From contig NC_049996.1 in the NCBI RefSeq assembly GCF_000003815.2, positions 16,970,930 through 17,034,929 of the forward strand: a stretch of 64,000 bases of DNA, read 5' to 3'. Below are positions 30,001 to 60,806 of the stretch, piece by piece. The notes below the pieces were generated by a model. The model saw only the letters and a list, made by a program, of their open reading frames with translations, did not search any database and had not been told where the DNA came from. The position numbers and the translations under genes are program-made. Position 1 is the stretch's first letter. Every line of letters starts with the position of its first letter. This DNA is from Branchiostoma floridae (lineage: Eukaryota; Chordata; Leptocardii; Amphioxiformes; Branchiostomatidae).

Positions 30001-33000
30001 TTACATGCTGGCTGATAACCACAACGCTCGGTAACCTACGCACTCTGTAGAAGCGCCATCTAGCCCCTCCCCTACCTAACGCAACACCACTGAAGAAACC
30101 ATGGCAGATTGACAGCTGCTAAGACTGAGAGGCGTTTGGCAAAAAAGCAGGCACTGCTGTGTTCTGGGTGTTGTGTTGTGATGTGGTGTGTGTGCATGTG
30201 TTGGGTGTAAGCTGGGTACCTTACGGTACCCGGGGTTTAGGTGCTTCACTAGTATTCATCGAAAGGGCTCGGACGCAATGACAATCCCGTGTTGTATCTT
30301 TCACGTTCAAGTCCCCCCGAATAGCTTCCAAACTTCACGGAAGCGACTCTTGTACCTCCTTCATGTTCTCTCCCTTCTATTTATCTCCCAAATCTATTTT
30401 GCAAGGAAACTCACACCAGGCCACCCCGTGGCTTAATTCTATTCCGTGTCATCCTAACGTACTGGTACGAAATCTGATCTCGCCCACCACCACTTCTTTC
30501 TATCTCTCTCTCTCTGTCTCGTCTGTCTTCTCTTTCCCTCGCTAATACCTTCTGTCCTTTTGATCCCCTCCCTGCTCTATACGTGTTATAGAGTTAGTAC
30601 GGATTGTTATACCGCCCGAGCCCACTTCGGTGATTACCAATGAGGTAACTAAATTCGAGTGCGAGCTGAACACGGAGAAAGCTGACGTGACGTGGTGGAA
30701 GGAGGGCGCGGAGCTGCGTCCCGGTGAGAAGTACCGGATGGAGAAGGATAAGAAGAAGCACACGCTGTTTATCAACGACACGACTGAGATGGACGCGGGA
30801 ATGTACTTCGTGACGGCCGGAGAGGACAAGGCGAATGCTCCACTGACAGTGGGAGGTTCGTGCAGCGCGTTTTGGTTCGCGCGTTTTTGCCGTTACGCGT
30901 AGGGTGCAGCGGACGCGATCATGTCACCGTACAGGCCTGTACATCTTCACTTTGTGTATCAAAGTTTTCCCCAGTCTTTCCTGCGACCTATGAGATATAC
31001 CTTGGAGGAAGCTCTGTTAAACCGGGTCGAGTTTTCCGCTTTTGTTGACGTTGCTTCTAACAAGCTGCCAGCCAATCAGAGAATCGCTTGGATGTTTTTA
31101 TTAGGCAAACTCTGATTGGCTGACAGCTGGTTAGAGGCCACGCCCACAAAAATAGAAACCTCAGCCCAGTTCAGCAAAGCCTCTCCAGGGTATACTGTGT
31201 AGGCCACAGGCGAGGCTCTTCGAAGGAGAATGCCGTTTCCCTGGTATGCTCCCGTCATAGCTTTGCAACTTGACACATAGGCTGCTACGGTATAAAAGTC
31301 ATTGGCGGTCTGGATATCCACCCATAAGGTCTCCTTTCCACTAAATAGTGATCCATCAGTAACTATTGAGCGACCAAAATTGAATTGGTTTTCTAACATT
31401 TTCATGATTGGATTTATGATTTAGATGTGATTTACGATGTAAAGGTATGAGGTGAAAGACACAAAAATACACAAATCTTAAGATTCATTCTTTGTCAATA
31501 AGGTTCGTGGATCAAGTGTTTTGTATCTCAGCAGTCGCTCGGCGGTCACGGCCCCTAGCGGGGAGAGATTGCTACTGCAGTCATGAGCATTTGTCATCAA
31601 TCATAAATGGTCTGCGTGGTACTGATGGTTTACGTTACATCATTAAGGCTAACACGGTGCCTGAATGCAGTACGGATATTAAGATGGGTATCCACGATTG
31701 CCCAGACTTTCATACAGTAGTAGTCAGAAGTTGATGTGACGGGGTCTGTACCATGGATATCAGTTGGGTTAGCAAATAAGCCAATTTATCATGAGCAAAA
31801 AACTAGTGATTTGCTCCGCAATCATTGCTTGTGTAAACGATCTTCAGAGTAGGTTCATGTCTTCAGATAGAGCATCTACCGAAGGTTTGTTGCATGTTTT
31901 CTTTACTTATAATAAGGAAAATTTGGTTGGTGATAAAAATATGACAATATCATTGAAATAAATATAATTGCACCTTAGATAATACTTCTAGGTGAAGAAG
32001 TAAGTGTAGTGTAGTGTCAGGTATCTCTGTTGGTGAGAAGAGAAGAAACTCAACGTTCAGAGGAAGACTTACTGATGTCTTTACGTCTGAACCCCTCAGA
32101 GCCACCTCTTAAGATGATTGAAGGTCCAAAGGACCAGCTGGTGATAGAGAAGGAGACGGCGACGTTCTCCTGCGTGACGAACAAGGATGGAGAAGTGAAA
32201 TGGCAGCGCGCTGGGCAGGACCTAGAGCCCAGCGAGAAGTACAAGTAAGGATGATGTAGTTACTGTGATCTAAACATGGTCGGAAGTCTCGGTGGTAAAA
32301 CACCACTGAAAGCTGAATCACGTAGTAGTAGCATGTCTGACTCTGAATTGCCCTTTATTATGTTTTATAGTTAAGCCTCGTAACTTAACAGTGCAAACAT
32401 ACATCACATGTTAATTTCTGCATCTTTATGAATAATAATTTTTGCTGGTCGGTCTTTAGATGAATTTAATACATGATGTTAAAGTTTACTTAATTGTTAG
32501 ATTGTTGCGCATTGTTAAGCTACGTTAAATCACAACCTAGGGTATTTCACTGGCTGTTGCCATTGCCTTGCGTGTAAAGCAGTGCCTAACTTCCATTGTG
32601 GTTCCTACTTAGGGCACGAGAAGGACGATACCCGCCTCAGTCTGCTGTCTAACTTCCCTTGTGTTTCTCCCTTGTGTTAGGCATGAGAAGGACGGTACCC
32701 GCCACAGTCTACTGATCCAGGACTGTAAGCTGGACGATAAGGACACCTACACTGCCGTGGCAGGAGACCACAAACTGTCTGCTAAGCTCACAGTCAAGCG
32801 TAAGTGTTTCAGACTCAATTATCACATGTAGTCTATGCTATATATGCTGTGGTATACAAGTTTAACTTCTGGTAAATCTTGCAGCTGGCAAGTACATGCA
32901 ATGACCTTTGAAAGGCTCATGGAATTGTTAGTTAAATAGTTATGCTATGTTAGTTGGCGAAGCACATCGATAAAGTGAGCATGTTTTCTCCAATGTGGCA

Positions 33001-36000
33001 GCAGAGAAGTTAACGATGCCAATTCAGCGTTATCTAGTGATGTTGTTTTCGATGGTAAAGCACGATTATTGAGTAAACTGCAGCCGGTTGATAATGGCAT
33101 TTTCACACACTTATGTATAAATGTATAAACTTGCCGCCACCAGTGCTCACAGTGACATTCGGAATCCCTCTGAACGTGATAGAGTTGTGTTAGATCTTGT
33201 AACACACTGGTGTAAAACATATATTTCTTTCTTGCCCCCACAGTGCCCGCAGTGAAGTTCGGAATCCCCCTGGACGACCAGGAGATTATGGAGACCGAGA
33301 CGGCGACGTTCGAGACGACCGTGTCTCGCCCGTGCAAGGTTACCTGGAGGAAGGGCGGAGTAAACATTGAACCCAGCGAGAGGTGAGAAACAAATAGATG
33401 CTACAACAAAATCAGACTTTAAGCAACATTGTTCTCTTCTTTGTCACCTGTCAGTCAGTAATGTTGAGACAATGTGCCTGTTTTAGCAGTCTTAATCGTC
33501 AACATGCTAAGGTACTATCCGTTTGGCTCTATGTTTAGACTTCAGGTACAGTTCAGTTCAGTTCAGTTTATTTATTTTTCCAGGAAAATACATCGCCTAC
33601 TGGCGTTTTTCAATACGTCCTGGGGGGCCGGGAGACCCCAACATGAAATAACACAAAATCACAACAACTGAATCAAAATTGAAATCAAAGGTCAAACTTA
33701 CATAACTAAACGTCAGGTGTCAACTATTTACAATACAAATAACTCAAGATAACTTAATATAATAATGGTAATAATAATAACAATAATAACACATTCAGGC
33801 AGTGGATCAACTTTAAATCAAAGTAATGAAAAGTGGAATGAAAATTGGAATTTGCATATCAATGTGTCGCTGGTCGGGCAGTGTTTGTTACAAAGTTGAT
33901 TTGCAAATGAAAAATAACAGAAAAGAACACAAATGTCAGTCTTAGCATCAAAACATAATACAGAAATCAAGCAAAAGGAACCACTGTGATATGACAGGTA
34001 CTAAAGTTAAAATATATACAATCAGAATCCTTTAGTCCAGGTGGTCATACAATCGTTTAAACTGTGACAGTGTCCTCGCAGATCTTAATTGGGACGACAG
34101 GGAGTTCCAGAGCACGGCCCCTGAGTATGAAAAAGCTTTCTTTCTATATTCAGATTTAGCTTTAGGCAGCAGGAGTCCACCTTGTGATCTAAGACGGGTA
34201 TTATGTGTGTGTATTTCTGAGAGTTGGGAGAACAATGCAGTAAGATGGGGAGGGGTCATGCCGTTAAGTGCCTTAAAAACAAGCGTTGCCTTACTTCAAT
34301 TTGCATAGCAATGTGACCAAGATGAAATTTGCATATCAATGTGACCAAGATGGCTGCTTTTTGACTTCTCTCCTAAAATCTACTCCAAAATCGTCTGGAA
34401 ATCTCCTTCAAAACCCACCATCAGCTTTTGTGGTGATTCAGGTACAAAGATAAGTATCTAAATTGTGTTTCGCTGTAACTATTTCTATCATTTCGACCTC
34501 TCTTTCCGATATTTTTAGTTTTCTGACGAGAAGGCAAACACTCCATCTTTGAACATTATCTTGAGGTTTATCTTTTGCATTGTGTAATTGCTTACGCCGA
34601 TGGTGATTCGCTGTAATGTCACTGTAACGTAGCGACTGATTTTACCTACATCATGTTAGTAATCCAGGGACTTTCCATCGTCATTAGAGGCACTGTCGTA
34701 TTCGGCATCCTCAGGGCATTGTTTATGTTAGTGTTAGCCCTAGCGGTGCTCCCGCGCCCTGCTAATGTACCTGTACAAGCTTTATGTATTCACCATAAAC
34801 CAGGTAAACCAGGCTTCTGCTGTATCAACACATCATCAAGCTTCTGTTGTTGACTGAAAATCATGTATTACACTTAGAACATTATTCGAAGCAAGACTGA
34901 ACTATAATCAATCTAGATATGTTCATTTCCTGAACCTGCATCCTAACCTCTACCCCAGGGTGAAGATACTAGAAGACGGTATGAAGCACACGTTGATCAT
35001 TGGTGACTCCGTGGAGGAGGATGAAGACAAATACACCATCCTGGCTGACGAGTCGGAGGCCTCGGCTAAACTTACAGTGTTAGGTGAGCAGATGTTTGTT
35101 TGTTTGATGTTGTTCTCTTAGGTGTAGATAACAAAACTCCCGTTTCAAATGATATGCTGTCAATGTCATGTTAAAATTGTAGTCAATTATACAAATGGAG
35201 AATCATGATAGACTTGAACTGTTTTATATATTATCAACAACCTTAGTACATGAAAAATTATAAATACTACCAGTAGTGTAACGTGACATTTCGCAAAATG
35301 CAATATAGATGAAGAGAAAAAAAGTTACATTTGACATTCTTTTGCCACCATATATCCAGAAAGTTAACAGAAACTTCATGAGATACAAAGATCTAGTAAT
35401 GTGTAGCAGAACTGTAACCAGTTCTACTTGATAGTATTAGTGTGCTGGCCGAAAGTACCGTGAACTTGTGAAACGTTTAAGTTAATTTTTCTTCTGCATC
35501 TTCTAGCTCTGCCTCTGAAGTTCATCCGTAAGATGACCTTGGCCACCGTGCCGATGAAGGGCACTGCTGTGTTCGAGAACGAGCTGAACAAGAGTGTCAA
35601 GGGCAAGTGGCTCCTCAAGGGCGATCAGGTCATCAAGGAGAGCGACAAGTACAAGATGACACATGTCGGCAAGGTCAGTCGCCAAGTCTGCTTTATTGTT
35701 CACAAGAACGATTTTTGCCTGGTAGTTCACTAGCTATAGGTCACCACTGTAAAAGTTGTATTGTTGCTTGAACTTCTACGGCCATTCATAGTGAGGAAAC
35801 ATCTTTTCCACCCTCACATTAAATACCATTAGGCGTTCACACAAAGTCTGCTTTATCTTACACTAGAGAGATTCCTGCTAGCAGTGTACCAGATCCCTAA
35901 CCTTTAGTGTAGTTGTTATGTGGCTTCTGCAGCAAATTCATGTGACTTATAACATGGCGATAATAACTACTAATTTTTTTACCCACACCTTCAATACTCA

Positions 36001-39000
36001 ACTGTAAGAAAAGAGTGTCTCATTTTTCAACTTTAAGGCAGACAGTGTGTAAAGGAACTGCCTTAACAAGTTGCCTATTGTACACCTGTTAATCTCATCT
36101 GTCTGTCTATGATATTGCGATGTTACATGCATTACAATGTTCAACTGTCTTACCTGCCAGGTCCACACCTTGACTGTCCATGACTGCAACTTCGATGACG
36201 AGGTCGAGTACGTCTTCGTCATCCCCAAGAAGGACCTTAAGGCTGCGAACACTCTCGAGATTGGAGGTTAGTTGCCTTTGAGCGTCTAGCGATTACACAG
36301 ATGAAAACATATTAGGGTGTCGTAATGATATCATATGCTAGATTAACATTTGGTATGTCGATACTAGAAATAATTCATTGACTGGATAGACAGACATTGG
36401 GGATTTCAACCCTTTTAGATATATTGTAACATTCATATAAAAGTATTGGACCTGTCCTGTGATTCTCCCACAGAGCCGCCTTACAGCCCGGACATTCATA
36501 CAGGCATAAACCATTGCACATGTCACCTACATTGTAGCACAAGTGAGACTAATATTGCTCTATCCCACAGAGCCGCCTAAGTTTGTGAACTACAGCCCTG
36601 ACATCCTGAAGACCCAGGCCACCAGTGGAGAGAAGCGCTCCTACAACATCGACTACGTGGGCATCCCCAAACCGCACCTGACATGGGAGGCGTTTGGGCC
36701 CATCGAGAAGGTGAGAGCAGGGTCCATGGTTCGTTTGTTTAAGTCCGGAAGAATTTTATTGGCAAGAATCAATTGACACATTGCTTTAATTCCCTAGTTC
36801 CAATTATATCTTACTCTAGAATTTTAGAGATTGTGAGAAGTGGCTGTCTTAAACTTTAGATATCTATTATAATTGTAGGTCTGATACCTGATGAAAGTAC
36901 ATACGCGATGTCATGCATTACTATTAATGATAGTATTATTGGTTGGTCCTTCGTTCGGCGTGGTTTGGACGTAACTCACAAAAATCATATGTTAGAGAAA
37001 TGTACATGTACTTAATTCCTGACATTGTCGTTAATAGACCGATCTCATAGCCCCATCCACCTCCTTCAAAACTTACAAATTTCAAAATGCAGACATAAAA
37101 GTAAGAATGTTTGACGGACATGCAGCGAGTCCCTCATTGGTTAAACCACTGATATTCATGCCGTCATTGGCTGATATACAGGATATGCTTGTAACAAACC
37201 CTGACCGGTCTTTCCCCCCTCCCCAGCCGATGGGACGGTCCACAGTGGAACGTCAGGACGACCCACAGGTGGTGAAGTTTGAGGTGCGTGACTTGATCCG
37301 CAAGGACGCCGGCACCTACAAGCTCAAGATCAAGAACAAGCACGGAGAGGACACACTGGACCTCGACATCAGTATCATTGGTATGATCTTAGCTTTCATA
37401 CAGCATCGTTTAACATCATTTTCCACCTTTTGAATGTTCTCTTTGTCAATGAAAAGTTTTAATGGTATAACGAAAGTCCGTGCTTCTATAGAAATAAAGA
37501 CACAACGGTGTACTATATGTAGTCAAAATGTCGCTGGAACGTCCCTGTTCACAGTGTGAATTTAAATTTGATTTCCTCAAAAAGTATCGGAGGTGAAATG
37601 TGTCCATTACAAGGTATCGTTGCTAGGACAGAAGAATGAATAAGAAAATAAGACCATGAATAAGAAAATACTTGAAATCCAAAAGACATTGACTACTTTT
37701 GCATGATTTGCGACGGAAGCAATATTCTAGAATCCGACGTAGTATTTGATAACAATTACCTTGGTAAGTCCTGATGGTCTGAGTCAGTGTGGATGCATAG
37801 AATTCTGCACAGATTTCTGCACCGATAAATGTAGAATTCTAAGAAACATACTATACCTTTTCATCTCACTCTCCTCCCCACCAGATGTCCCCGGCCCGGT
37901 ACAGAGCCTTGGTTTCACTGACGTCACCAGGGACAAGATGTCCTTCTCCTGGCAGGCTCCTGAGGACGACGGCGGCTCTCCGGTCACCGGATACGTCGTC
38001 GAAGTCATGGGACCCAAAGAAGGTACGGCACTCATAGTGGCTGCTTGTAGAGTGCTCCCAAGTCTTCAGTTCTAATGCTGTGTAGTTCAACTGTTAGATA
38101 TACAGGCGTACGGATAATTGACGTTTGATTTGGTGGGTAGAATTTACAGATCCGAACCACTACAGTCAAACCTGTAAAAGTGACCACCTCAACATGAAGA
38201 CTGCCTGGGCAATGCGGTTCTGATTTTTTCCGTCAACATAAAAATCATGTCTGTGTTGACCACCTGTTTACATAGACCTCATCTGACCGTTTATTGACGA
38301 AACCAAGTCAGTTACTTTTGTCATAATTATGATTGATAATTTAATTCAGGTATAACTGCTATGCAACAAGAAGTGAAAATGAAGCGACTGACCGTCCAAG
38401 CGGACCCCTTCTTATCCGGCTTAGAGGAGCCTAAGGCAAAACGGGACCGCTCTAGGGAGCAACCCGCGTCTCCTGAGGAAGAACACGACACATATCTGAG
38501 AGGTAGAGGTGTCCTCCCCCCCCCCGAGTAAAACAGTCCAGATTGTGTCTTGTGAATGTCATAATCTACTTCGTTGCACGAGCGTAGAGCGCAATAAGAC
38601 AAACATCTGCTGGTTGAAGTTTGCTGCTTTAAAAGGTAAAAAGAGCTCTAAAGCAGCTACATGCATGGCTTCTTATGTGCCTCTCAAACTTTACCAACAA
38701 AGCTTGAATATACAAACATGCTGAAAAGTAAGATGGAGATTCTTTGCCTTTCTAAAACTTAAAAACACTGTAAGCTGAAACGCTAGGGAATGTCCCTTGC
38801 TCTGCGACTAATATTTTACCTTTTGTAAATTTTGGCTATTCATGACAATGCAGTATTGGTGTAGCTTCTAATGTTGTTGAGCTGGGCCAATTGACATTTC
38901 TGCAGTCGTGCTTTGCGGGCCTTTACCATATCTGAGCTTTTGAAAAGGCAGGCTTCATAACAGAAAAAGCTTAAAAACAACTGCAGAAATACAAGGCTTA

Positions 39001-42000
39001 TAGCAATACATTTTGCCAGCTACTGCTTTAGTAACGCTTGCTTTCTGCGTACGTAGCTGCTTCGCAAGAGGACGCGAAACAGAAGCGGCTTTCTTCAATG
39101 GCAGGTGAAAGTTCTGAGACGTACTTAGAAGGGTTGGAAGAGTCTAAAACGAAACGTCTTCAGGCCATGAAGCTGGCTGATAAGCCACTGCCTCCTCCGG
39201 TGGCAGTTCCTGGTAATATCGGAGGTAAACATGTGAGATTGCCCCCCCCTCCCTCAAGTCCACGTACATGTGAGATTGCCCCCCCCCCTTTCCCAAGTCA
39301 TCGTACATGTACACATGTGAGATCGCCCCTCCCTTTCCCAAGTCACCGTACATGTAAACATGTGAGATCGCCCCCCTCCCTCCCCGAAGTCACCGTACAT
39401 GTCAACATGTTAGATCGCCCCTTCCCTCTCCCAAGTCCACGTATATCCGGAGGCCAATGATTGGTGATTTCCATGGCTGTTTATTTCCTTACTTTTGGTG
39501 GTGAATTCCCGACTTTGAACGGACTTCGTCACTTTTATAGATAAAGTAGCAACAGTACCCACAGCTGTAGAGTAGCTGGTCAGGGTTACTAGGATGGCGA
39601 CCCAACAGTTATCAAAGGTAACTACGGCCATGTCCATTCACAATTTATAAAATCACTACCAAAGGTGACGAATTCCGCAGCCGTGGAGGTTGCCAATCCA
39701 CAACCTCCGGTAAACAACCTCCTCCCGTCCCGTTGGCCGTAACTCTGGTGTCTTTCTTTAAAGTCCTCAATCAAGAGAACTACCAGAAAGGATAGTACAG
39801 ATTCCAAACACAAAAGTTTGAAACTACGGAGAAAAGAGGGGAATGGCAGAATTAAGAAAAAGTTGTATACTCCAAAATCTTCGCCACTCCCATACATATC
39901 CTTCATGGTCGTTCTCTGATGGTCTCACCACCCACATACACACCCTTCTCGGTTCGTGTTCTACGGTCACCCCCTCGACTCCATCTGGTCATCTTGTCAT
40001 TCATCAGCCCTTTCCAACTTTACAGGGTTCCTTGTCCATCATGTGCCTGTGACCTCCCTGTAAATATCCCGAATATTCCAAAGTCCTCATTCTGTGGTGC
40101 GTTCTGCATAATGGTCATCATGGTAACAAACTGTTCACCGTTAACTTCATTTTTTTCAGTCTTTCCCAACTCCATATGATTGTTTCGTTATCAATCAGGT
40201 ACCATCCCTGTAAATATTCTTGATTTTCCATGTCCCCATTCTGTGATGCGTTCTGGATAATAGTCACCAGGGTAACAAACTGTTCACCGTTCACTTCATT
40301 CTTCAACTACATAGCATTGTTTCCCCCGTCCAACCTGTGTCATCCATTTAAATTATCTGGATTTTTCCCAAGCCTGGATTTTATTTTCCTGCAGAAGTTT
40401 GGGATCTTAAAGATTCACCTCGAATTTTACATGCAGCTGCTAAGAAATAGATACTTCCAAATCATGGTACCCATAGCATTAACTAAAGCATTGATTTGTT
40501 CCTCCCTACAACAGAGACCTGGACAGTCCTGACGGACAAGTGGCCTGACTTCGAGTTCATTGCCAAGGACCTGATCGAGAACAACGAGTACACCTTCCGC
40601 GTCACGGCGCAGAACGTTGTTGGGCGGGGCCCGCCCACGGAGACGCCCAAGCGGAAGGCCAAGCTGCCATTCGGTAGGATGAACAAACATGTTATCTTTC
40701 GATTTGGTTGAATGGCTTATATAATATATATGTCTCATATGCATAGTTGGTACAAGTTACATCTAGATGATGATCCCATTTGCTAGCCTGTGTCCAAATT
40801 TAGGTCTAACATTCTGTAGATCATTAAGAAACCATACCTGACATTTTCATGACCCCCCTCCCTTGGCCCCCAGACCCACCTGGCCCCCCTGAGAACCCAC
40901 AGTTACCTGAGGTCAAGCGCACACAGGTCAAGTTCACCTGGGAGGTGCCCACGGAAGATGGCGGTAGCCCCATCACAGGATACTTCGTGGAGAAGAAGGT
41001 GAAAACTTAAATCAATTTTATCTTACAATATTCTGTACATCCGTGAATAGTTTCATCAGTTTGGTATGTCAAAAGTGTCTCTTTATTCAATGCTTCGTAC
41101 AGTTCCATCTTGTATCGATGTGTTGTTAGCTTCAGTTCTTTCCAATAGCCATCATTATGATATACATCAATAATACTTTCTTGATTACATTCCAGCTGGA
41201 TGGAGGTGACTGGGTTAGGGTCAACGACCTGAAGACCCCTGACCTGAAGATGACCATTAAGGATCTGCCGATGGGCGCGGAGGCGGAGTTCCGTTCTCTG
41301 GCCGTGAACTTGGCCGGGGAGGGACCGCCCAGCAAGCCCATGGCGCCGGTCAAGCTCTTCGGTACGTCTTATACAATCCGAACACATCATATATGCTCTC
41401 CTCGAGGGATAGGTGTTCAATACTTGAGAGATTAAAAGTCATCGTTCTCCGAAATAAACCAGTATCATTTATTTATTATTAATATGTTTTAAAACCGAAT
41501 ACAGTGTTTGCAACTTTAACACCAACATTTTCTATTTCTATGAATTCGTAAGTCTGTTCTCGAACTCAGTACCCGGCGTTTGTTCATGCTGCTGCAAGAG
41601 TTCATTGAATCTTTAACCCCTTTGTGGCTATCTATATTACAGTAATTTGGTTCCCTGATTATCAGTATAGGTTTTATAATGTGATGAAATAGTTATATAA
41701 AATCTTTGTAGGGCACGTGTATGTTGAGGAAGGTTGAAGAATGAAGTCGTGACGTTGTTTTGTTCTCCCTCCCCCAGAGCGACCGGGTCCACCCCAGAAC
41801 CTGTCCCTGACCAACCCGAGCCGGTACGGTGTGACCTTCACCTACGCAGCCCCTGCTGACGACGGCGGCACGCCAATCACCGGTTACCATGCCTACCGTA
41901 CGGAGGAGGGCCTGGACGACTGGACACCGTGCGCTGACCCCACCATGGACACAAGTCTCAAGGTCAGGAGATACAAATCTTGAGTTGAAATCTTAAGATC

Positions 42001-45000: not shown

Positions 45001-48000
45001 GTAGATCATGCCACAAAGAAGTCTATCAAACTGTAAGCGAATCAAAATGTAAAGACTTAAATCAGAGCTTTGTTACCAAAATTTACACAAATGTATCATT
45101 CTATTTGTGTAATTGTTCGCTTGGTTCTTGTTTGGGTATGGTAAACTTTGCATTGTTATATACATTATGTAAACGAATATGACATTTGCAGGAGGGAAAT
45201 TTGCGAGGCCACAGCCGCGTGGCAGACGACATCAAGGTGACGTCCCACGAGGTTCGCGACCTGGTGGGTTACGAGAACTACAGCTTCCGCGTGTACGCTG
45301 TTAACAAGTACGGACAGGGGCCGCCCGTGGACTTACCTGAGGCCTTCAAGGCCGTGGACCCACTGGGTACGTTGTATTGGGTTTTGCCATCTTGTTCTAA
45401 AGTGATGTAATAGCGTGTTAATTTCTGCTCCACCCTTTTGTGTGGTACAAAATGAAATGAAATTTTTCCATAGTTAAAAAATTTCATACAAATTGTTACA
45501 TGTTTGAACCAGACGTTCAAGATTCCTGTTTCTTTTTCGGAAAATGAAGGAAAGTCTGAAAAATTAAAACTAGTTTACATTTTTTGTTATCGTACAATGT
45601 GATGCAAACGCTGACCCATCAATCGTAGAAACGTCAGGATTGTGCCATTTTCTACGAAAATTCCAACCAATCAGATCTTCCCCGCAACTCCCCTTAATGC
45701 ACCAATAACATTGCTCCATTCCTAAAAACATTCTAACCAATCGGATTCTAAACTTTCCCGCAGCTCCCCCCGATCCACCAATCAACCTGAGCATCACGGA
45801 CCCGCTGGACGACTCGCAGGTGGTGAACTGGCAGCCCCCGGAGCATGATGGGGGCAGCCCCGTGTTCGGTTACTTCGTGGAGAAATCCATCGCAGGGACC
45901 AACAAGTGGGAACCCGTCAACAAGGAGGCATGCGAGTACCTCAAACTCAAGGTGGGCTTATCCGATAGAGATATACAATGTGCTTTGGAATTTTGATTTC
46001 AGACTAGCCTTCGATATTGGTAGTCAAAGCTAAAGTTAGTCCAATGGCATGGATGTCTGTCTCATAGCTAAAGATGTAATATGGAAGTAAAATGATGAAA
46101 AACAACATGCTCTAAGACTGTGTCAGAAGCAGCATGACGAAAGTCACGGACCAAGGCAAAAATAGTACGCTATGTTTGAAATATCTTAAAACAAAGAGGC
46201 CACTTTGTAAATCAAATCAGCAGTCCAAAAAATAAGAGGGGGGATATATGTGCACTCTTAGTATTGAGGAATGTACACAAGGCTTGTATAGGTCTACGGT
46301 ACGGAGATCGCAATTCTAAAACTCGCCTCCCCCTCCCCACCGCAGGTGCCAGGCCTGGAGACCGGTAAGGAGTACGTGTACAGAGTGTACGCTGCCAACG
46401 TCATCGGCCGCAGCGGACCGTCCGCCATCAGCAAACCGATGAAGGCACAGATGCCTGCCGGTACGTACTGAATTAAGATTTTTTTTGTTTTTCTGCGGTA
46501 CGATTTTCAGGTTTCCACTGACTGCTGACCTCACATAGTCAGTGATGCACACGTTCACAAAGAAAACTATTGTCCTCTTAACATTACAGAACCAACATAT
46601 TACGAGTAAAGTGAGATCTGCTGTTTTCCATTGTTAAAGAAGAAGTCAAGCTTAACAAATGGAGATTTAGACTCAGCATTTAGATTCAAGTAGTCGCATG
46701 GTTTTCATTCTTAATTGTCCCTCTTCGTTCATGCTACCTGTAGTTGTTTAGGCAAGGATTGGACTCAGATTTACCATTTAGATTAGATTATTCTCATGTA
46801 ATATTCAAAACCTATTCTTCTTCTTTCCTGTTACTTGTACGTATTCAGGCAAGTGTTTAAAACGTATTTCTACTGATTGTTCCCATGCTAACTTTCACTC
46901 ACTTGTTGCAGAACTGCCGATCCTGAAGTTGAAGGTTGACCACTGATTGTTCACATGCTAACTTTCACGTACTTGTTGCAGAACTGCCGATCCTGAAGCT
47001 GAAGGTTGACCACTGATTCTTCCCATGCTAACTTTCCCGTGCTTGTTTCAGAACTGCCGATCCTGAAGCTGAAGGTTGACCACTGATTGTTGCCATGCTA
47101 ACTTTCCCGTACTTGTTACAGAACTGCCGATCCTGAAGCTGAAGGTTGACCCGGACATCATCGTGAAGGCCGGGGTAAAACATATTTCTACTGATTGTTC
47201 CCATGCTAAGTTTCCCGTACTTGTTACAGAACTGCCGATCCTGAAGCTGAAGGTTGACCCGGACATCATCGTGAAGGCCGGGGAGACCATCAAGCTGCAG
47301 GCTGACTACAGCGGCAAGCCTCAGCCCGACATCGCCTGGATGATGAAGGACGTGGAGCTGTACACGGACGACCACATGAGCGTCACCACCACGGACGACA
47401 CCACGCTGCTCGTCATCAAGGTGTGCGAGCGGCAGGACCGCGGCCCGTATGACGTCATCGCGAGCAACGTGAGCGGGAAGAGGACGGAGACTGTGCACGT
47501 GGAGGTTATCGGTGAGTGCAGACTACATCTCTTGTCTCGTTATTATTGATAATATTTCGAGCCGCTCAAAAGCTTGTAAAACTCCCCTAATGATAGAATA
47601 AGCTTAATGAGTGTAAGTACCCGCTTACTCTTACCCTTACTCTACCATTGTTGTCTGTATATGGCAGAATTTACGATGATTTATGATGATTTAGTTTTAA
47701 AAAATCCCAGCTCTCGTGTGATTTTATCACCGTCAATCTTGTACATTCATTTTGTACTCTCTTTGGCAAGATGCCACTACTGTGACACAGTCTGAGACAA
47801 CCAACAAGTCTTGTTGTTCTCATATTTGACAGTATCCCGAGCTGTATATGTCAATGATTGCAAGAGTCGTGTCTCTTACGAAACCTCATCATCTTCTCTC
47901 CTCCCCCAGACGTGCCCAGCGAGCCCACCGTACCGAAGATCCTGAAGCGCATGCCTGAGGAGATCCACATATCCTGGGGCCCGCCTGAGGATGATGGGGG

Positions 48001-51000
48001 CTCGCCCGTCACCAACTACCGGGTGGACAGGAGAGACATGACCCGACCTCAATGGAAGGTACGTGCAAGAAGGAAATCCGTTTAGAAATTCTTGTAGTCA
48101 CCCAGTGGTTAGTAAGACTAGCTGTACTTACAGATTAGGCGTTCCAATATCAGCTATTGTCACTAGCCTTACATGTACCTTACTGCAGCTTTACATGCAA
48201 CACTTAGAATTGTATGTTAATCTCTAGTTCACTGTTCATTGTCCTTGTTGCAAAAGAGCACGGGGAATTTGCCATGTACAATGCACCTGTGTAATGTGTA
48301 TACTGTACATAGCATCTGCCACAATCAGTAGAAAAGGCAACTAAAAGGCTAAGACATCAGAAACCATTTAGATAGTTAAAAGGTTTTTTCTTAAAGCAAG
48401 CCTCAGGGATATTCAGGATATTAACTGTTGTGTTGTTTTCCTCCCCAGGTTGTAGACAAGTTTGTGCCTGTGGACTGTACCGAGTACGCCGTTACGAAAC
48501 TCGAGGAGGGAGTTGAGTATGTTTTCCGCGTCATGGCGGAGAATAAGATCGGACTTGGTCGGCCCACAGAGTACAACCCTGTCGTGGCCAAGTACGCATT
48601 TGGTAAGTACAAACAATTAGATACAGTACCGTTATACCTAAATGCGTATTTTGGTACATTTGTGAGTGGTAATAAAATATTACTAACTTGAACACTATAA
48701 CAAATGAAAACACCACTATGACTTCGGTAATCATCTCTTAGCAAGAATCGGCTTTCTTTCATCCTGTAGTTTTTCAAGTCACAGTTTGACTACAGTACAA
48801 TGCCGTATTGTATAGAATTTTTAAAATCTATTCTAGTAGATTATTATCCCATCAGTTATATGTCTAAATATACTTCTGGAATACATTTTCATTAAATAAA
48901 TTTCCTCCCCCCCTCCCCCTCAGATCCTCCTGGACCACCCCAGGACCCACAGATCCATAACGTGACTAAAGCAAGCCTGACCCTGCTCTGGAAGGACCCA
49001 CTCGAAGATGGGGGGAGTCCCATCACTGGTTTCTGGGTGGAGCAGCGCGACAGCGTCACCGAGAGGTGGATAAAGTGAGTGCAACACGTGATATTCAGTC
49101 TTATCCATTGTTTACAGCCTTGTTTGAAATAATGCTAATCAACAAATAAGATAAAGTATTGTGATATTCTAACCATGTGCAAGGTAATTCAGTCAGAATA
49201 TTTGAATTTTTAATCTGCTTCCTTAATGTGACAGTTTTAAACTTATAAAGACTTCAGTTTTAGAAGTTGCTTAAATGATACCGATGGCAACAAGCAAAGC
49301 AGTTTTGACCCATGAGAGATACTTGACTTGGATATTTATATAAAATAACGTCTTGTTTTCCTAACCTCAGACTGAACAAGGATGAACAGATCCCAGCGGA
49401 GACCCACGAGTACAAGGTGGAGAACCTGCAGAAGGGACAGACCTATGAGTACCGCATCTCCGCACAGAACATGGCGGGAGTAGGACCGCCCTGCTCACCG
49501 ACAGAACCGGTCATCGCCCGCGATCCTCCAGGTACGGACCGGGCTGCTTCTTCATCTTTGTCCTCCTGAATAGTAAAACCTTTGGTCTCTATAGATTCTG
49601 ATTCAAGACATGACATGAACACTGTTGGCAGAGCTACATACTCCATTAGCTTTGCAGTTGTATACCATCAGAAGTCAAACTTGAGATTTAAAGCATTCTG
49701 AAGTGGCCCCGAGAACTTCCAAAATCATGCTTTTTATGCAAGTCATCATGAAACATCAGACTTGAAGCATGGACATTGTACACTCTGATACAATTCTGTT
49801 TTGCAATAATGCAGCTTTTAAATAGAACCATACTGCGAATACTTTACAATGCAGTACTATATACATGTATTCTACATCTCTGTGTTTACAAGAAATGACA
49901 ATATCCATTGTTTATCCCAGGACCTCCCGATCCCCCGATCAACCCTGAGATCCTGGATACCGGGAAGGACTCCATCCTCATGCAGTGGCTGCCGCCAGAC
50001 TTTGACGGCGGGGAGCCAGTTACCCACTACATTCTGGAGTACTCCGTTGGAGTAAGTGCAGCGTTATGTCATCTTCATTCAATTTCATTCATTCTACATA
50101 CAATCTGTCTAGATTACCTCGTGTTAAGCAGTTAGTTACCCACTACATTCTGGAGTACTCCGTTGGAGTAAGTGTGGTGTTCTTCCATCCACATCTGTCT
50201 AGATTAGCTCGTGATAAGCAATAAGACCTTGCCACCCAATAAAACACAAAATGAACCAATTCTTTAGTTTCATTCAGTTATGAGTGATCAAGAAAACATA
50301 ATTGATGAAGATCCCTAATGTCTTTCTCATTGGCATTACTGTATCTGTCTCCCTACTTCTGACATACATATTCATGGATGATGCCTAGTTACCCAGATTC
50401 TTTACTAGTAAACTGGCCATTCCTTTAAAACGATTTGGTAACATTCGCCAAGTCATTGACTCTTCCAGGCGACATTGTGAGCTAATTTTTGAAATCAACT
50501 CTTAAAAGAAATTGATTGATAAACGTCTCCCTTGCAGGACACCGATGAGTGGGTGGAGGCTGGCACCTTCCCAGTTGCAGAGGAGCTGAAGTTCAACTAC
50601 ACCGGACTGGAGGAGGGTATCGAGTACAGGCTGCGTGTGAAGGCCGTCAACAAGATCGGCCCCAGCCGCCCTGCCAACCCGCCGGGAACTTACTCACCTG
50701 CGCGACCACTGTGTAAGTGTACTTTCATACCATTGAATACATCTATAGAGTAAAGAGTGTAGCCATATCTTCGCATGCAAAAAAGCAGCCATCATCAGGT
50801 ATAGAAAACCATATTATGTCATTTTTATGCAGTTTGCACTGTGCTATTGGACCTGGTTGGTTCAATTTGGCTGGTGTGCTATTGGTTCATGTACTGGTGA
50901 CGTACTGCAATTGTAACTGAAATTCATTGCCGTAGAAAACTACTTCAATGGTTGATTTTTTATGCATTAATTTCTGGAAACCAGCACAGATTAATGACTG

Positions 51001-54000
51001 TCAAATTAGACATTGACATGAAACGTGCCTTCAGTCTTTGGATGTGTGTCCATGGTTTTCAATGATTCTTAACATCAGCAAGTGACTTTTTTTATTTAAC
51101 TAATGGGTTCCATTCAAAACATGACTACAGTAGTGCACCTGTCCTTGTCTTTGCTTATTCATTTTTCCTTTAATGATGTTGAAAATGTTCCCTTTCCTCC
51201 CCAGTCCGCCCCGACCCGTGCATTAAGCTGAAGGTGACCGACATCCGTGACGACTCCGCCGTGTTCTCCTGGGACCCCCCAGAGTGGAACGGCGGGAGCC
51301 CCATCACTAACTACATCGTCAAGAAGATGGAGGTACGTTTTAGTCCATCCTTCTTCAATGGAAGAGTCAGATTCTGAATGTACGTATGTGGTTTATTGGT
51401 CTAAATTAGTCAACGCTGGTGATCAGAAACACACCATTATGCTGTAATTGTGCAGCTTAAAATCGAGGTAAATGACGGCACTGGCAAAGAATCGTATTCT
51501 ATTTATGATAGTATAAAACGTTTTCAAGACTAGTATTTAATACACGTGTATCTCATGTTGTTTCAGCAATGTGTGTTGAATGGTACGGCATTCATTATTG
51601 TCTATATAGATACGTTAATACTACAAAACACCATTGGGAAAATTCAGCGAAATTTGAATAAGAAACCAGTGTATACCGTAATGCAATAGTCTACATTACA
51701 TGTAAACTCTACCAGACATCTAACCAGGTGAGCCTTGTTCCTTCAGATGAAACGTGACAAGTGGGTGACGATCACCGAGACGCTGGAGGAAACCTTGTGC
51801 AAGATTCCCAAGCTGACCAAGGGCAACATGTACATGTTCAAGGTCAGCGCCCAGAACAAGATCGGCATCAGCGATCCGGCTGAGACCGAGCCGGTCAAGG
51901 CAGAGAGTCCGTTTGGTACGTGCTTCATTTTCTTGTTCATTGATAAATATAGTACTTCCTACTGCATTATGCTCAGTCCATACTTACTGTGACACGAACT
52001 TCATGTAGAGATGTCTATCTCTGATGATAAAAGTGTATTTTATTTGGGGAAATCATCATTAAAGTGCTTGCTACATGGTTAACACTTGTAGATACACACT
52101 TTTTGTTTCCATCAAGATTGTGATATTTTTTTTTTTTGGAAAATGCTATCACTTGCACATGGATAAGTTATAGAGATATCCATTTGGTAATTTGTTCATA
52201 TAACTCTACAGCTATAGTAACAATACTTTCTTGTCTTATATTCATTCATACATTTTCAGAAATGTCTTCAGACTCATTTAAAGCACTTTTATCTGCTGGC
52301 CGTATGCTCTTCTTATCGATTTCCCTAACACGTCTGCGTACTCCCCCTCCCCTTCCGTAGGCTTGCCTGGCCCACCGGTTGAACCGAAGGCCTATGACGT
52401 AACGAAGAACTCCCTGTACCTGGTATGGCAGCGGCCGTGGAGCGATGGCGGATCGCCCATCATCGGATACATCCTGGAGAAACGCGAGAAAGGGGAGAAA
52501 CTCTGGAGGAAGGTGCGGGCAAAATTTAGCTCCCATTTCATGTATCTGTAGATATATGAAGGCAGTCAATGGGACCTTTATATTTTTTCTCTTACAAATT
52601 TACAACTAACAATGATATGGCATACATTGCATAATCGTCTTTATCCTAGCATTTTCGTCTTTCTCTTATCATTAAAAAGGTTGATTGATATATCTATTGA
52701 TTGATAAATTGATTGATTGGTTTTGATTTCGCTATCGGTCAGTTTATTCTGGACTACCTGGTCCACTTATAAACAAACTCAATACAATGATTTATTGATT
52801 TATAAATCAATGCCATATTGATTACTAATGTATTGATTATTGATGTATTGACCCACAGGTCAACAGAACCCCGCACCCGAAGTCTGACATCACTCTGGAC
52901 GAGATGATCGAGGACACGGAAATGGAGTTCCAGATTAGCGCTGTGAACGACGTGGGGGTTGGCCCTCCTGCAGACCCGATCGGACCAATCAGGATGACAG
53001 ATCCACAGGGTAAACAACAAACAGTGTGTTTGTAAACAAACCTAGCATCCACTGTTATTAGGTAAACACTCACAGAACCAGGTAAAGCTTGTAGTGTCGC
53101 GAGCTTGCAAGAAAGTATCTTCCCGCTAAAGAATAAGCAAGTATATTGAAAAACAAAAGGATATCATAGCAGAAATCACGTCATATCAAGTTCAGCACCA
53201 AGGACAGATACCGTAGTTTGGCCTGATTTTGTTTATTCCTTACTCTTGACATAGTAGTCCATAAGCATATGGTAGAATCCTAGTGCTGTACTTCCCCTCT
53301 TCGCTGTCAAAGCGATTGTGGTATATAGTGAAAGTCGTCCCCTTTTGCAATCAATTTGGACTCATGAAGTAAAGAGATAAACACTGTGGTAGAGGAGCCA
53401 AACACAACCATGTTAGACCTCAAAGAAAACTAAACCAGTCACCCTCACTATAACCTTTCCACCTTCACTTATCGCTAACTCGTTGTCATGCCAACAGGTC
53501 CGCCTGACCCGCCCATCAACCTTGACCTGAGCGAGCCGTTTGCCGACTCCATCATCATCCACTACGCTCCGCCTCTGTTCGACGGGAACAGCCCTATTAT
53601 CGGATACGAGATTGAAAGGGCCGTTGACGGCACAGAGGACTGGGAGAAGTGCAACTACGACCCCTGCCCGGACCTGTCTTATGAGGTGGGTAGTCTTCTC
53701 CTTCTTCTTCCATCAAACTAAACGTATTGATTTCTAGGCAAAGCGCAATCAGACAATCATCTTCCAAGCATTTTTGGTAGCTGATTGTGGTTTTACTTTA
53801 CGAGAGATCGCTTGAAGCGTATGATTTACAATTTTGTGTCCATCATTTTGAAGAAGAAGCTCTAGCGTATATTGCTCCCAGCTGTACGTCTTGAGAAGTG
53901 CCCAAACCCCATGATCAATTGATTGACAAAAATGGCGAGTGGTAATGATAGTCATTGATTCAAAGTTGTAAAACGATAGTAGTCATCGATGTAAAACCCA

Positions 54001-57000
54001 TTGAACCAGGGAGTTAAGGACTAGAAAGTAAGATAAATACAAAAGTATTTCAATACAGTAAAATGTATTCGTACCTCCTTTCTTCAGGTCCGTGGCCTTA
54101 AGGAGGGTCTGAAGTATAACTACAGAGTCAAGGCCCGCAACGCTGTGGGGCCAAGCAAGCCTTCGGAGATCTTAGGACCCATCGAGGCCAAGGATCCGGA
54201 AAGTAAGTCTTATACATTGTCTTGAGATATGTTGGTATACTTTTACTTTTCCTGAGAAAATGTCCATTGTAATTTGAAAACAATACTGTATGTTCTTCTC
54301 TAACAATCAAATTCCTATCTTTTCAGTCAAACCTTCGTTTGACCTTGACTGCCTGCCCAAGGACATCATCGTGCGTGCAGGAGAGACCATCAAGCTGGAC
54401 ATCCCGCTTCAGGGCTGCCCTCTGCCAGAGGTCATCTGGACTAGAGATGGTAGGTCACAGTTCAGAGTTCAGAAGTGTTGTCTGTTCTCCTCCCTAGTAT
54501 GATATCCAGTGCAAACTTGCAGATAAGATAATGTAAAAAGTAAATAAGTCAATTCTATAAATCTAGCTGTCGTTTCTATGTACATGTACTGTAGGGGATT
54601 GACTTTGAATAATTTTGTTTTCCAAGCGGGTTTGCAATTTTAGTAAAAATGTGTTTTTGGAGGCCTTCTTTTTGTAAGATGAAAGCTTGTAAGAGTTATT
54701 TTTGTTTCAGAATGTTTTTTCTTCTTCTTATCCTTATAATGAAAACATTAACAACTGAAATAACAACATCTCATTTTCGCATTTCTCTGTAGGCAAGCCT
54801 GTTGAGGAGGACGTCCGCACGTCCATGCACGTGACCAAGGAGTCAGGGAAGACAAGCAGGGCCGAGCTGGTCATAGTGGACTCCGCCCGCAAGGACAAGG
54901 GGGCACTGACCCTCACTCTCAAGAACAAGTGGGGCGAGGCCTCCGGAGTCTGCAACGTGCAAGTGCTCGGTACGATATTCTGATTATATCTGATCTGTAT
55001 GGTACAAATAATATAGCATAACACGTCTACTTCAAACACTGTTTCAAATCTTGGAAAGCAACATTGCATAAACATTTTTCTGAATTGAATCTTAACATTG
55101 CGTTTGCTCAAATTGCCTTTATCGTTTAAGGAAAGTACCAACGGTCCTAATCATCCAGTAGTGGTTGTCATACTCTACTTGTACCACAAACCATATCAAG
55201 AAAATTTGAGCAAACAACACATTTTCTGCTCCTAGGATTACATCATTTACATGTATACCTTGTTATGCATTTTGCCTTTTAGAAAAAAAAAAAAACGTTT
55301 TTTTTTTCCATTTGCAGATGTTCCCGGACCGCCCCTGGAACTGTTCCCGTCCCAGGTGCGCCGTAACCATAGCGAGTTGTCATGGAAACGGCCTGAGGAC
55401 GATGGCGGATCTCCAATCACGAATTATCTGGTGTTCTTCCGCGAGGCCGGCCGCAAGTTCTGGTCCAAGTCGACCGACGCCTGCCACGGACTCTTCTGGC
55501 AGGTGAGGGGAAATGGTTCAAAATAGATCAAAATATTCTAGACAAGATGATTTTATTTCATACTTGTCAGTTTATGACGACTACGATACTCACTTTGATA
55601 CTCATTTCATGAAAGCTGGCTTCAGTTTCAATTCATGAAATACCAAAAGCACAAAGTATCACCCATGGTAATCGCCTAGTAGTTCAGAAAAGTGACCACA
55701 AATAGTCATCAGAAATACAAAATCATGACAAAACGTTTTGACATCTTACATGCCCAATAATGCTTTACACAATCGTATTTTCTCGTGCTGCTACCTTACC
55801 ATTTCTTTAGGTGGACGGCCTTGTGGAGGGTAAGGAGTACTACTACAAGGTTCATGCTGCTAACTTACATTGTACTATTTCCCTAGGTGGATGGCCTTGT
55901 GGAGGGCAAGGAGTACTACTACAAGGTTCATGCTGCGAACAAGATCGGAGAGGGACCACCGGCTGAGATCGACAAGATCCGTGCTATGGATCCTATCGGT
56001 AAGTTACGGGCAATCATCATAAGATCGACTTAACGAAAATAGATATCTTCTTCTTCTCGTGTCATCACTACACAATATAGTAAGATATGACCCAGGTTAA
56101 TAGTTTCAGCCATTCTAAAATAATGATGACAAAAATACTCTGACACTAAGACTAACATCTTGTTGCGCCATCAACACTATCTTTTAAATCCCACACCAAA
56201 GAGGCTCCCGGCTTGTGTTGTTTTGTTTTAATACAAAATAGATTCCACATATAGCAACTACTGTGTGCCAAAATGCCATGATTTTGATCTTCAATAACGT
56301 CAATGATTAATTGTCTCATCCTTTAACCCCCTTCAGATCCTCCCGGCCCCTGTATTGACTTCCAGCACACGGACCCGCGCAAGGACTCGCTGGTGCTGAA
56401 CTGGAAACCGCCCAAAGACGACGGCGGCTCCAAGATTATCGGCTACAACGTGGAGTTCACGGAAGCCGACAAGCCCGGCGAGTGGCGCGCTATTAACGAC
56501 TACCCCATCTCCGTGCTGACCACGCCCGTACTGGGCCTGACCGAGGGCACGGAGTATATCTACAGAGTGAACGCGCAGAACGCAGCGGGAGTTGGCCCCT
56601 GGGTCAACCTGCCCGAGTCTGTTCTGGCACGGGATCCTTCGAGTAAGTGGAGCACTTTGTGTTGGCTCACATTCCGACAAAAAACATTATGTAGAAGTCG
56701 TTATGATGGTAATAAAATTACATGTACTTCGAGAGGTATAGCAGAACCAATTCTAATATAATTCGACAGTACAGTCTGAATACTTATTGTCGTGAGCTTA
56801 GTGAGCAGATGTCATTGGTTCATTGCTGTACAGATTTCTTGTCCTAAGAATCTTTGTTAAAGTCTGAATATTTAGTCTTTTATACGCAGTGCGTACATGA
56901 GAGTAATGAATTTTGATGTAGTTATTTTCGTGAATAAAGAACATTGTATTGCTAGGCTAATTGTTTAGTCAGTAGATACTATAGGTTCATTGCTACAGAT

Positions 57001-60518: not shown

Positions 60519-60806
60519 GGAACCATGACGTTCCATGCCGTAGTGGGAATGTCACCAGGTTTGGTAAAGACGCGCCCCACATCATGTTGCCAATCTGTTT
60601 CATGATAATCCTATGCCTGGAAAACTCACAACATGACAAAACCAATATTATTTGTTTGGTTTTGTCATGTTGTGAGTTTTCCACGTGCAAGTTGTCTTAG
60701 GCCGAAATCCCTTAGCGTTAAAGCATTTTGCACAGTAACATGAAGTGGGGCGCGTCTTCACCACACCTGGTGACATTCCCACTACGGCGTGGAACGTCAT
60801 GGTTCC
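60519..60806. repeat. Inverted duplication of the transposase 3' coding end, with a 27-bp inner hairpin
   Basis: 60,519-60,589 and 60,735-60,806 are inverted copies with four differences over about 71 bp. An inner pair (60,619-60,645 and 60,656-60,682) is perfect. The left arm read on + still encodes MTFHAVVGMSPG, the same stretch as the minus-strand ORF near its C-terminus. So a fragment of a second copy of the family lies head to head with the intact one. Confidence 0.85.

What the first reader, a model, noticed from the sequence alone, without database searches (positions are those of the whole stretch)
32587..57528. Exon-boundary minisatellites recur across the 3' half of the gene
At least ten introns between E38 and E78 hold partial copies of an adjacent exon edge together with its splice site and intron flank: E39, E40, E44, E58, E60, E76, E78 (acceptor side) and E54, E56, E65 (donor side). 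Offsets run from about 70 to 140 bases (425 for E78). The copies range from perfect (E65) to decayed (E58, AG to AA). A repeated origin at exon edges, not in intron interiors, points to a specific mechanism such as repair or replication slippage at splice-site sequence. I recall, unverified, that amphioxus 'mirage' minisatellites were described as overlapping exon-intron boundaries; if so, this gene would be a rich new case.
Basis: partly seen in the sequence, partly recalled or inferred. Interest (0 to 1): 0.85.

Follow-up and report, generated by a model that had tools for sequence, protein, structure and literature searches.

The report
Lancelet titin's duplicated exon edges
In the giant muscle gene titin of what is very likely a lancelet (amphioxus), short pieces of DNA that cross exon edges have been copied again and again into the neighbouring introns, a known lancelet habit called "mirages"; this gene holds ten in the window and twelve more beyond it, enough to measure where such copies start and end.

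Summary
Confirmed. The gene is titin/connectin. The genome fits Branchiostoma floridae: 513 Mb, window on contig C18, and two of nine globin loci carry repeats that fit the published mirages BflGb6 and BflGb9 in unit length and side. Boundary-spanning repeats called "mirages" are published for several lancelet genes, so the kind is known. The next 100 kb of titin added 12 more.

"At exon edges, not in intron interiors" is only partly right. Ten of 20 duplication loci in the window's gene are intronic, and a coverage test shows no junction excess (10/153 against 49/774). Placement tests show an excess at acceptors (16 of 46, 7.2 expected), not donors (6, 6.9 expected). Sharper: all 22 copies carry at most 54 exon bases, where neutral simulation puts 52% at 55 or less; but the two globin mirages carry 94-96. 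A splice-site-specific mechanism is possible but not required: survival bias plus selection against exon-rich copies could give most of it.

The parts
362..59505 (+). Titin/connectin gene, part: 79 predicted exons (I-band Ig exons, then split Ig and FN3 exons of the A-band)
   Evidence: gene model; titin best PDB hit 448 bits; Pfam fn3/I-set
32583..32714 (+). Acceptor mirage of exon 32681-32799 (reader E39): offset 63, 34 exon bases copied
33130..33276 (+). Acceptor mirage of exon 33244-33382 (reader E40): offset 101, 33 exon bases
36466..36578 (+). Acceptor mirage of exon 36571-36710 (reader E44): offset 97, 16 bp exact, similarity resumes after a gap; weakest case
43587..43752 (+). Donor mirage of exon 43476-43612 (reader E54): offset 129, 26 exon bases
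44606..44777 (+). Donor mirage of exon 44507-44631 (reader E56): offset 140, 26 exon bases
45639..45782 (+). Acceptor mirage of exon 45764-45951 (reader E58): offset 71, 19 exon bases, copy AG decayed to AA
46858..47283 (+). Nested acceptor mirage of exon 47230-47511 (reader E60): a 108-bp unit and repeated 70-bp units with other ends; four intronic acceptor copies plus the real one
50018..50220 (+). Donor mirage of exon 49921-50051 (reader E65): offset 116, 41 of 41 identical, 34 exon bases; a second stretch matches at offset 90 (indel)
55797..55940 (+). Acceptor mirage of exon 55887-55998 (reader E76): offset 76, 91%, 54 exon bases; TGCTGC shared at the two ends
56798..57536 (+). 51-bp intronic minisatellite with a copied acceptor of exon 57529-57688 (reader E78) at offset 425, 8 exon bases
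2849..3210 (+). Interior intronic tandem array (not a mirage), 30 bp after a donor
12654..12837 (+). Interior array of 29-bp units starting 2 bp into the intron after exon 12385-12651
19483..19858 (+). Interior array, 44 bp after a donor
26980..27135 (+). Interior duplication, 41 bp after a donor
28817..29082 (+). Interior duplication, 57 bp after a donor
29250..29388 (+). Interior array, 27 bp before an acceptor
29655..29956 (+). Interior duplication, 69 bp after a donor
33846..34343 (+). Interior duplication deep in a 1576-bp intron
39225..39446 (+). Interior array in a 2492-bp intron (two uncertain small exons were left out here)
40055..40303 (+). Interior duplication, offset 150, 85%

Best explanation
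These are lancelet 'mirages': short local duplications (21 of 22 with offsets of 58-190 bp, one of 425) that cross an exon-intron edge in the titin gene. A unit is duplicated in place, most likely by error-prone repair of a staggered break or by slippage with 0 to about 11 bp of shared sequence at the ends (inferred). If the unit crosses an acceptor or a donor, the extra copy lies in the intron, is spliced out and does no harm (inferred). The exon copy stays constrained while the intron copy drifts; matches run from 100% (exon 50051) down to 72% (exon 45764, where the copy's AG is already AA). Such duplications also arise in intron interiors of the same gene. Junction-crossing copies found in titin include only a short stretch of exon (up to 54 bp), either because duplication ends fall near exon edges or because copies with much exon disturb splicing and are lost; these two are not separated here. 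Repeated events at one edge make minisatellites (exon 47230: a 108-bp unit and 70-bp units with different ends).
For: Ten of ten reader sites align across the junction. Two of nine globin loci of the same genome carry repeats at offsets 150 (acceptor) and 157 (donor), as published for BflGb6 and BflGb9. Interior duplications of similar size occur in the same gene and in five other stretches with few or no predicted exons. Within matched stretches 488/549 exon-part and 1021/1195 intron-part bases are identical. Offsets show no frame preference (5, 8, 9 for remainders 0, 1, 2), and only 2 of 22 copy sites would give an open in-frame extension, so regular use as splice sites is unlikely for most. 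Joints read by eye: blunt for the 70 and 108 units, TGCTGC at 55887, about 11 bp at an upstream copy. One downstream locus looks like a whole-exon copy whose exon body has been deleted.
Against: No transcript data were available, so 'spliced out and harmless' rests on published RT-PCR for other genes (passages) and on the open real exon. Copy splice sites score above neutral expectation (3.28 vs 2.27, P=0.019), and 19 of 22 keep AG or GT, which could hint at use, though requiring the match to cross the junction biases this upward. In 13 of the 15 cases where the match is clearly shorter than the offset, the rest of the unit did not align clearly better than shuffles (z 1.4 or less), so a full tandem unit is inferred there, not shown. 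The two globin mirages carry 94-96 exon bases, against a general limit near 54.
Confidence: 0.8

Rival explanations
1. Exon edges are true hot spots: breaks or slippage start preferentially within about 50 bp of an exon edge, for instance at nucleosome borders of exons or at the pyrimidine tract of the acceptor.
For: Outer ends of loci lie within 30 bp of an exon edge in 25 of 46 (13.8 expected, P=0.0005), in the unseen downstream part 17 of 24 (9.0 expected, P=0.0018); short-overlap junction loci 22 vs 9.3 expected from a decay simulation (P=2.3e-5); acceptors 16 vs 7.2 expected (P=0.0008); interior loci also lie nearer to exon edges than expected (P=0.021, 10 loci of the window; P=0.0046, 12 loci downstream).
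Against: Coverage test shows no junction excess (10/153 vs 49/774; interior count inflated by arrays). In the window alone ends within 20 or 30 bp are not significant (4 vs 3.2; 8 vs 4.7, P=0.069). Donors show no excess. Out of sample the plain junction count is not significant (12 of 24, 9.0 expected, P=0.13). No junction locus in the window's 5' part (0 of 7) or in the upstream Ig array (0 of 10). A twofold survival advantage removes significance (P=0.16).
Confidence: 0.3
2. Neutral, even duplication plus selection and survival: copies crossing a junction are kept up to twice as long because the exon copy cannot be deleted or drift, and copies with long exon parts are removed because they look like exons.
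For: All 22 copies have 54 or fewer exon bases (neutral simulation: 52% at 55 or less, P=5.5e-7); one apparent whole-exon copy persists with its exon body deleted; with a twofold survival factor the excess is P=0.16.
Against: The two globin mirages keep 94-96 exon bases. Copy splice sites are not weaker than neutral, though selection against use should weaken them. Acceptor excess over donors (16:6, P=0.052) needs a further assumption.
Confidence: 0.5
3. Some copies are functional: extra acceptors are used as alternative 3' splice sites that lengthen titin.
For: The nearest upstream copy of the exon 47230 acceptor (108 nt) and a downstream case (57 nt, region coordinate 182678) are in frame and open.
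Against: 20 of 22 would shift the frame or meet a stop; published mirages are described as not disturbing splicing.
Confidence: 0.05
4. Assembly artefact: collapsed or duplicated haplotypes.
For: The globin paper reports haplotypes with different copy numbers and a draft version that seemed misassembled.
Against: 20 of 22 copies are 72-91% alike and the alignments end inside exons at many places; a haplotype join would duplicate long stretches.
Confidence: 0.03

Closest known systems
Amphioxus globin mirages, BflGb6 and BflGb9 (PMC3087553, passages read)
   Same: Tandem duplication of an intron-exon boundary, acceptor or donor side, extra copies in the intron; two globin loci of this genome fit them (offsets 150 and 157)
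   Different: Two globin genes there; 22 junctions in one stretch of titin here, with shorter exon parts (4-54 vs 94-96 bp)
Adh3 mirages of B. floridae and B. lanceolatum (Canestro 2002; as cited; the paper itself is not held)
   Same: Boundary-spanning minisatellites, units 10-72 bp as cited
   Different: Somatic length instability is reported there; not testable here
PGBD5 60- and 108-bp repeats and TnC mirages (PMC3902484, section 17 read)
   Same: Imperfect repeats (PGBD5) over 5' and 3' splice sites in lancelet
   Different: Other genes; no counts or placement test in the section read
Intron gain by tandem duplication of AGGT proto-splice sites (PMC2891723 outline and abstract; model passage)
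   Same: Short tandem duplication that copies splice-site sequence
   Different: There the copy makes a new intron inside an exon; here the copy lies in an existing intron and no new intron is seen
Small tandem duplications at breaks with 3' overhangs (PMC8355091, passages read)
   Same: Short tandem duplications made by end joining of staggered breaks, with or without microhomology
   Different: Shown in mouse and human cells at induced breaks; not linked to exon edges in the passages read

Membership tests
Lancelet mirages | Repeat unit spans an exon-intron boundary | tested here: met
   10 of 10 sites in the window, 12 more downstream
Lancelet mirages | Copies stand in tandem over the whole unit | tested here: inconclusive
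   Met for seven of 22 (match about as long as the offset or longer); for the other 15 the rest of the unit aligns clearly above shuffles (z 2.4 and 4.5) in only two
Lancelet mirages | Found in a cephalochordate genome | tested here: met
   Same genome holds globin repeats that fit BflGb6 and BflGb9; 513 Mb, contig 18; connectin on amphioxus chromosome 18.
Lancelet mirages | Authentic splice site still used; normal mRNA | not testable with these tools
   No RNA; predicted real exons stay open
Lancelet mirages | Length polymorphism between haplotypes, somatic instability | not testable with these tools
   One assembly only
Lancelet mirages | Copies more similar inside the array than at its ends | not tested
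   Not computed
Intron gain by tandem duplication | New intron with donor and acceptor from the two copies, mRNA unchanged | tested here: not met
   Copies lie in existing introns; the one acceptor-donor pair I looked at (47122-47174) would add 53 nt, which shifts the frame. Other copies were not examined for this

The most novel reading that the evidence does not exclude
In B. floridae the ends of short duplications are set by exon edges: they fall within about 50 bp of exon borders on either side, more at acceptors than donors, because chromatin or splicing-coupled structure at exon borders steers breakage or repair. Mirages would then be a footprint of exon-border breakage that can be read across a whole genome.
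Probability: 0.25. Interest if true: 0.75.

Novelty: new member of a known kind. Interest (0 to 1): 0.48.

Why it matters
In the papers I could see, mirages were described gene by gene. Titin offers 255 predicted exons in about 164 kb, so their number (22 edges), side bias (16 acceptor, 6 donor) and short exon overlap can be measured. If the placement is mutational, it says where breaks or slippage occur relative to exons; if selective, it measures how much exon a decoy may carry before splicing suffers. Both bear on the proposal that mirages seed new introns.

Tried and rejected
Chance similarity: rejected for all ten by comparison with other introns, though exon 36571 rests on 16 bp plus a resumed match. 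Whole-exon duplication with decay: not what the ten alignments show (copies end inside exons), but it is what one downstream locus looks like (region coordinate 235030). Detection bias from the frozen exon copy: simulated; it does not raise the junction share (0.40 at origin, 0.355 detected). Selection on frame: no preference. Junction enrichment by coverage: none. Other genomic stretches as a wider test: failed, almost no predicted exons. Pfam on the antisense ORF: no family at E 0.001.

Choices that affect counts. Exons edited by hand: starts 24869, 27445, 60257, 60925, 38425, 39105 dropped; 47122 and 47247 replaced by 47230; 25034 replaced by 25146-25307 at an N gap; ends of two exons corrected. 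Exons upstream and downstream with coding score under 12 were dropped (in the downstream 100 kb: 182292, 195043, 197146, 202008; the middle two look like real Ig exons). One downstream locus (235030) was kept out of the placement tests; the upstream 0-44 kb and 64-75 kb were not tested by themselves because the gene model is poor there. The 46 loci are 20 of the window gene, 24 downstream and 2 in the long intron between. With higher score limits the results weaken: at 40 bits window 7 of 15 (4.5 expected, P=0.12), both parts 17 of 35 (12.0, P=0.047), acceptors 12 (6.1, P=0.011). Over 44-264 kb of the region, 25 of 69 (16.9 expected, P=0.015), acceptors 18 (8.6). The split of the window into 5' and 3' parts is also after the fact (Fisher P=0.003). 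Expected junction counts differ slightly between two versions of the same null (5.53, 5.12).

Full report
WHAT THE WINDOW IS. The + strand carries a long run of Ig and FN3 exons. A splice and codon model trained on the window gave 86 exons, curated to 79 (edits listed under Tried and rejected). A 395-residue stretch of the 3' part matches titin structures best (8g4l, 448 bits, residues 2-385), and Pfam gives fn3 and I-set. The window is C18:16970930-17034929 of a 513,431,437-base genome in 431 contigs. The connectin paper places connectin on amphioxus chromosome 18 (PMC12198301, passages). In the same genome a globin search gave nine loci. Four of the nine hold local repeats; in two of these the repeat crosses a predicted exon edge: L026, offset 157, donor side, and L030, offset 150 with further copies, acceptor side. 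They fit the published BflGb9 (157 bp, 3' boundary of exon 2) and BflGb6 (150-160 bp, 3' end of the B12.2 intron and 5' part of exon 2) (PMC3087553, passages) in unit length and side; the published sequences were not compared. I therefore take the organism to be Branchiostoma floridae; the record itself has no name.

THE OBSERVATION. Nine have matches of 32 bp or more. Reader E44 (exon 36571) rests on 16 identical bases across the acceptor, after which similarity resumes past a gap. In a test of each junction window against its own intron and against 100 samples of other introns, 10 of 153 junctions score 32 or more with no control reaching them, and they are exactly these ten. The edge of exon 47230 has two events with different ends: a 108-bp unit, and 70-bp units.

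ARE EXON EDGES SPECIAL? I tested this in several ways, and they do not all agree. (a) Coverage: junction windows are covered as often as interior windows (10/153 vs 49/774, odds ratio 1.03). The interior count includes several windows of the same array. (b) Placement of whole loci, allowing only placements that leave exons intact: window gene 10 of 20, expected 5.5, P=0.02 (5.1 and 0.012). By part, the 5' part has 0 of 7 (expected 2.0) and the 3' part 10 of 13 (expected 3.0); this split is after the fact. (c) Out of sample, the next 100 kb of the same gene (176 predicted exons; L012-L021): 12 of 24 loci at junctions, expected 9.0, P=0.13; acceptors 9 (4.5, P=0.022), donors 3 (4.4). Upstream: Ig array 0 of 10 (expected 1.2); region 44-64 kb 3 of 11 (1.9, P=0.29). 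(d) Window plus downstream, 255 exons: 22 of 46, expected 14.1, P=0.007; acceptors 16 (7.2, P=0.0008), donors 6 (6.9). (e) A decay simulation with a mostly frozen exon copy does not favour junctions (share 0.34-0.36 among detected for window plus downstream). Against 0.355, 22 of 46 gives P=0.058, and 16 acceptors against 0.174 gives P=0.0035. (f) Ends: 25 of 46 loci have an outer end within 30 bp of an exon edge (13.8 expected, P=0.0005), downstream alone 17 of 24 (9.0, P=0.0018), window alone 8 of 20 (4.7, P=0.069). Interior loci also lie near edges (P=0.021, ten loci; P=0.0046, twelve loci).

A SHARPER PATTERN. The exon part of the copies is short: 22 of 22 have 4-54 bases, although 21 of 22 offsets are 58-190 bp. 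In the simulation 52% of detected junction copies have 55 or fewer (median 54), so 22 of 22 has P=5.5e-7 (rank test P=1.4e-6), and short-overlap copies number 22 against 9.3 expected (P=2.3e-5). Each part alone gives P=0.0014 (window, 10) and 0.0004 (downstream, 12). Only one coding-coding match within 600 bp exists in the analysed region, and it looks like domain paralogy, so long copies were not hidden by being called exons. Against a general rule, the two globin mirages carry about 94 and 96 exon bases (read from coordinates). One downstream locus, kept out of the counts, shows the acceptor-side flank fused directly to the last 20 bases of the same exon with its donor: apparently a whole-exon copy with the exon body gone. 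This suits selection against exon-rich copies but is one case.

DO THE COPIES DO ANYTHING? Splice dinucleotides remain in 19 of 22 copies. Mean splice score is 5.2 for real sites, 3.3 for copies and 2.3 expected under neutral change (P=0.019); because the match must cross the junction, this is biased upward. Offsets show no frame preference. If used, 20 of 22 copy sites would shift the frame or meet a stop; the exceptions are the 108-nt copy at exon 47230 and a 57-nt copy downstream. I read most of them as neutral decoys.

MECHANISM. Shown: duplication in place, repeated at one edge, drift of the intronic copy, and the same kind of duplication in intron interiors and in five other stretches with few or no predicted exons (L031, L033, L034 at arbitrary places; L035, L036 beside kinase matches). 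Inferred: origin by end joining of staggered breaks or slippage. The joints that I read by eye run from blunt (70- and 108-bp units) to six bases (TGCTGC, exon 55887) and about eleven bases (an upstream copy at region coordinate 49590), which suits end joining with or without microhomology (compare PMC8355091, passages). For 13 of 15 copies whose match is clearly shorter than the offset, the rest of the unit could not be aligned clearly better than shuffles, so these may be decayed tandem units or shorter local insertions. Not settled: whether short exon overlap and acceptor bias are mutational or selective. A twofold longer survival of junction copies would by itself make the count unremarkable (P=0.16).

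WHAT IS KNOWN. Mirages are described for Adh3, globins, PGBD5 and TnC, and two further papers (retinol dehydrogenase, presenilin) are cited for similar structures (passages and reference list). My searches of the open-licence library (listings) showed no report of them in titin and no placement test, but the amphioxus connectin paper (Ohtsuka 2011) was not read and Canestro 2002 is not held, so this is no proof of absence. I file the finding as a new, unusually rich member of a known kind.

LIMITS. Exons are predictions without RNA.

Noticed in passing
window 60651-62678, - strand: A 676-residue open frame antisense to titin, in the intron between exon 59354-59505 and the next predicted titin exon about 5 kb on; very basic at its start; no Pfam family at E 0.001.
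   Followed up: partly
L010-L011 (region 86552-100039) and the start of the window: A run of 19 predicted Ig exons, mostly 267 bp and phase 1/1 (LVDFCPGLEDQYAIE... type), leading into the similar exons of the window: looks like exon-by-exon expansion of the I-band.
   Followed up: no
L002-L003, region coordinates 8637-10632: A 495-bp unit in about four tandem copies that reaches over the acceptor of an Ig exon at 10596; a small copied exon start (VDVTWYHNDSPY) was also predicted at 9503. It looks like a mirage with a much longer unit.
   Followed up: partly
L008, region coordinates 64734/66799 and 65352/67395: Pairs of near-identical short predicted exons (FSDDELARLRAL; LTDEEIEALRRAGL-PDDIAALAAR) about 2 kb apart, a local duplication upstream of the Ig array.
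   Followed up: no
L013, region 178640-178988 (contig 18 about 17,049,570): An intronic array with a 75-bp unit and a 149-bp higher-order unit that begins at a donor; units repeat CAGgtaggg-like donor sequence. In effect a donor mirage with fewer than 4 exon bases, counted as interior.
   Followed up: partly
L019, region 235030-235394: The upstream intron holds the exon's acceptor-side flank fused to its last 20 bases and donor: apparently a whole-exon copy with the exon body deleted.
   Followed up: yes
L025 and L029 (globin loci): Local repeats (offsets 102-256 and 116) close to, but not across, the predicted globin exon edges.
   Followed up: no
window 25046-25145 and 42654-43420: Two runs of N; the first removes the start of an Ig exon, the second lies just before an exon with a donor mirage.
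   Followed up: no
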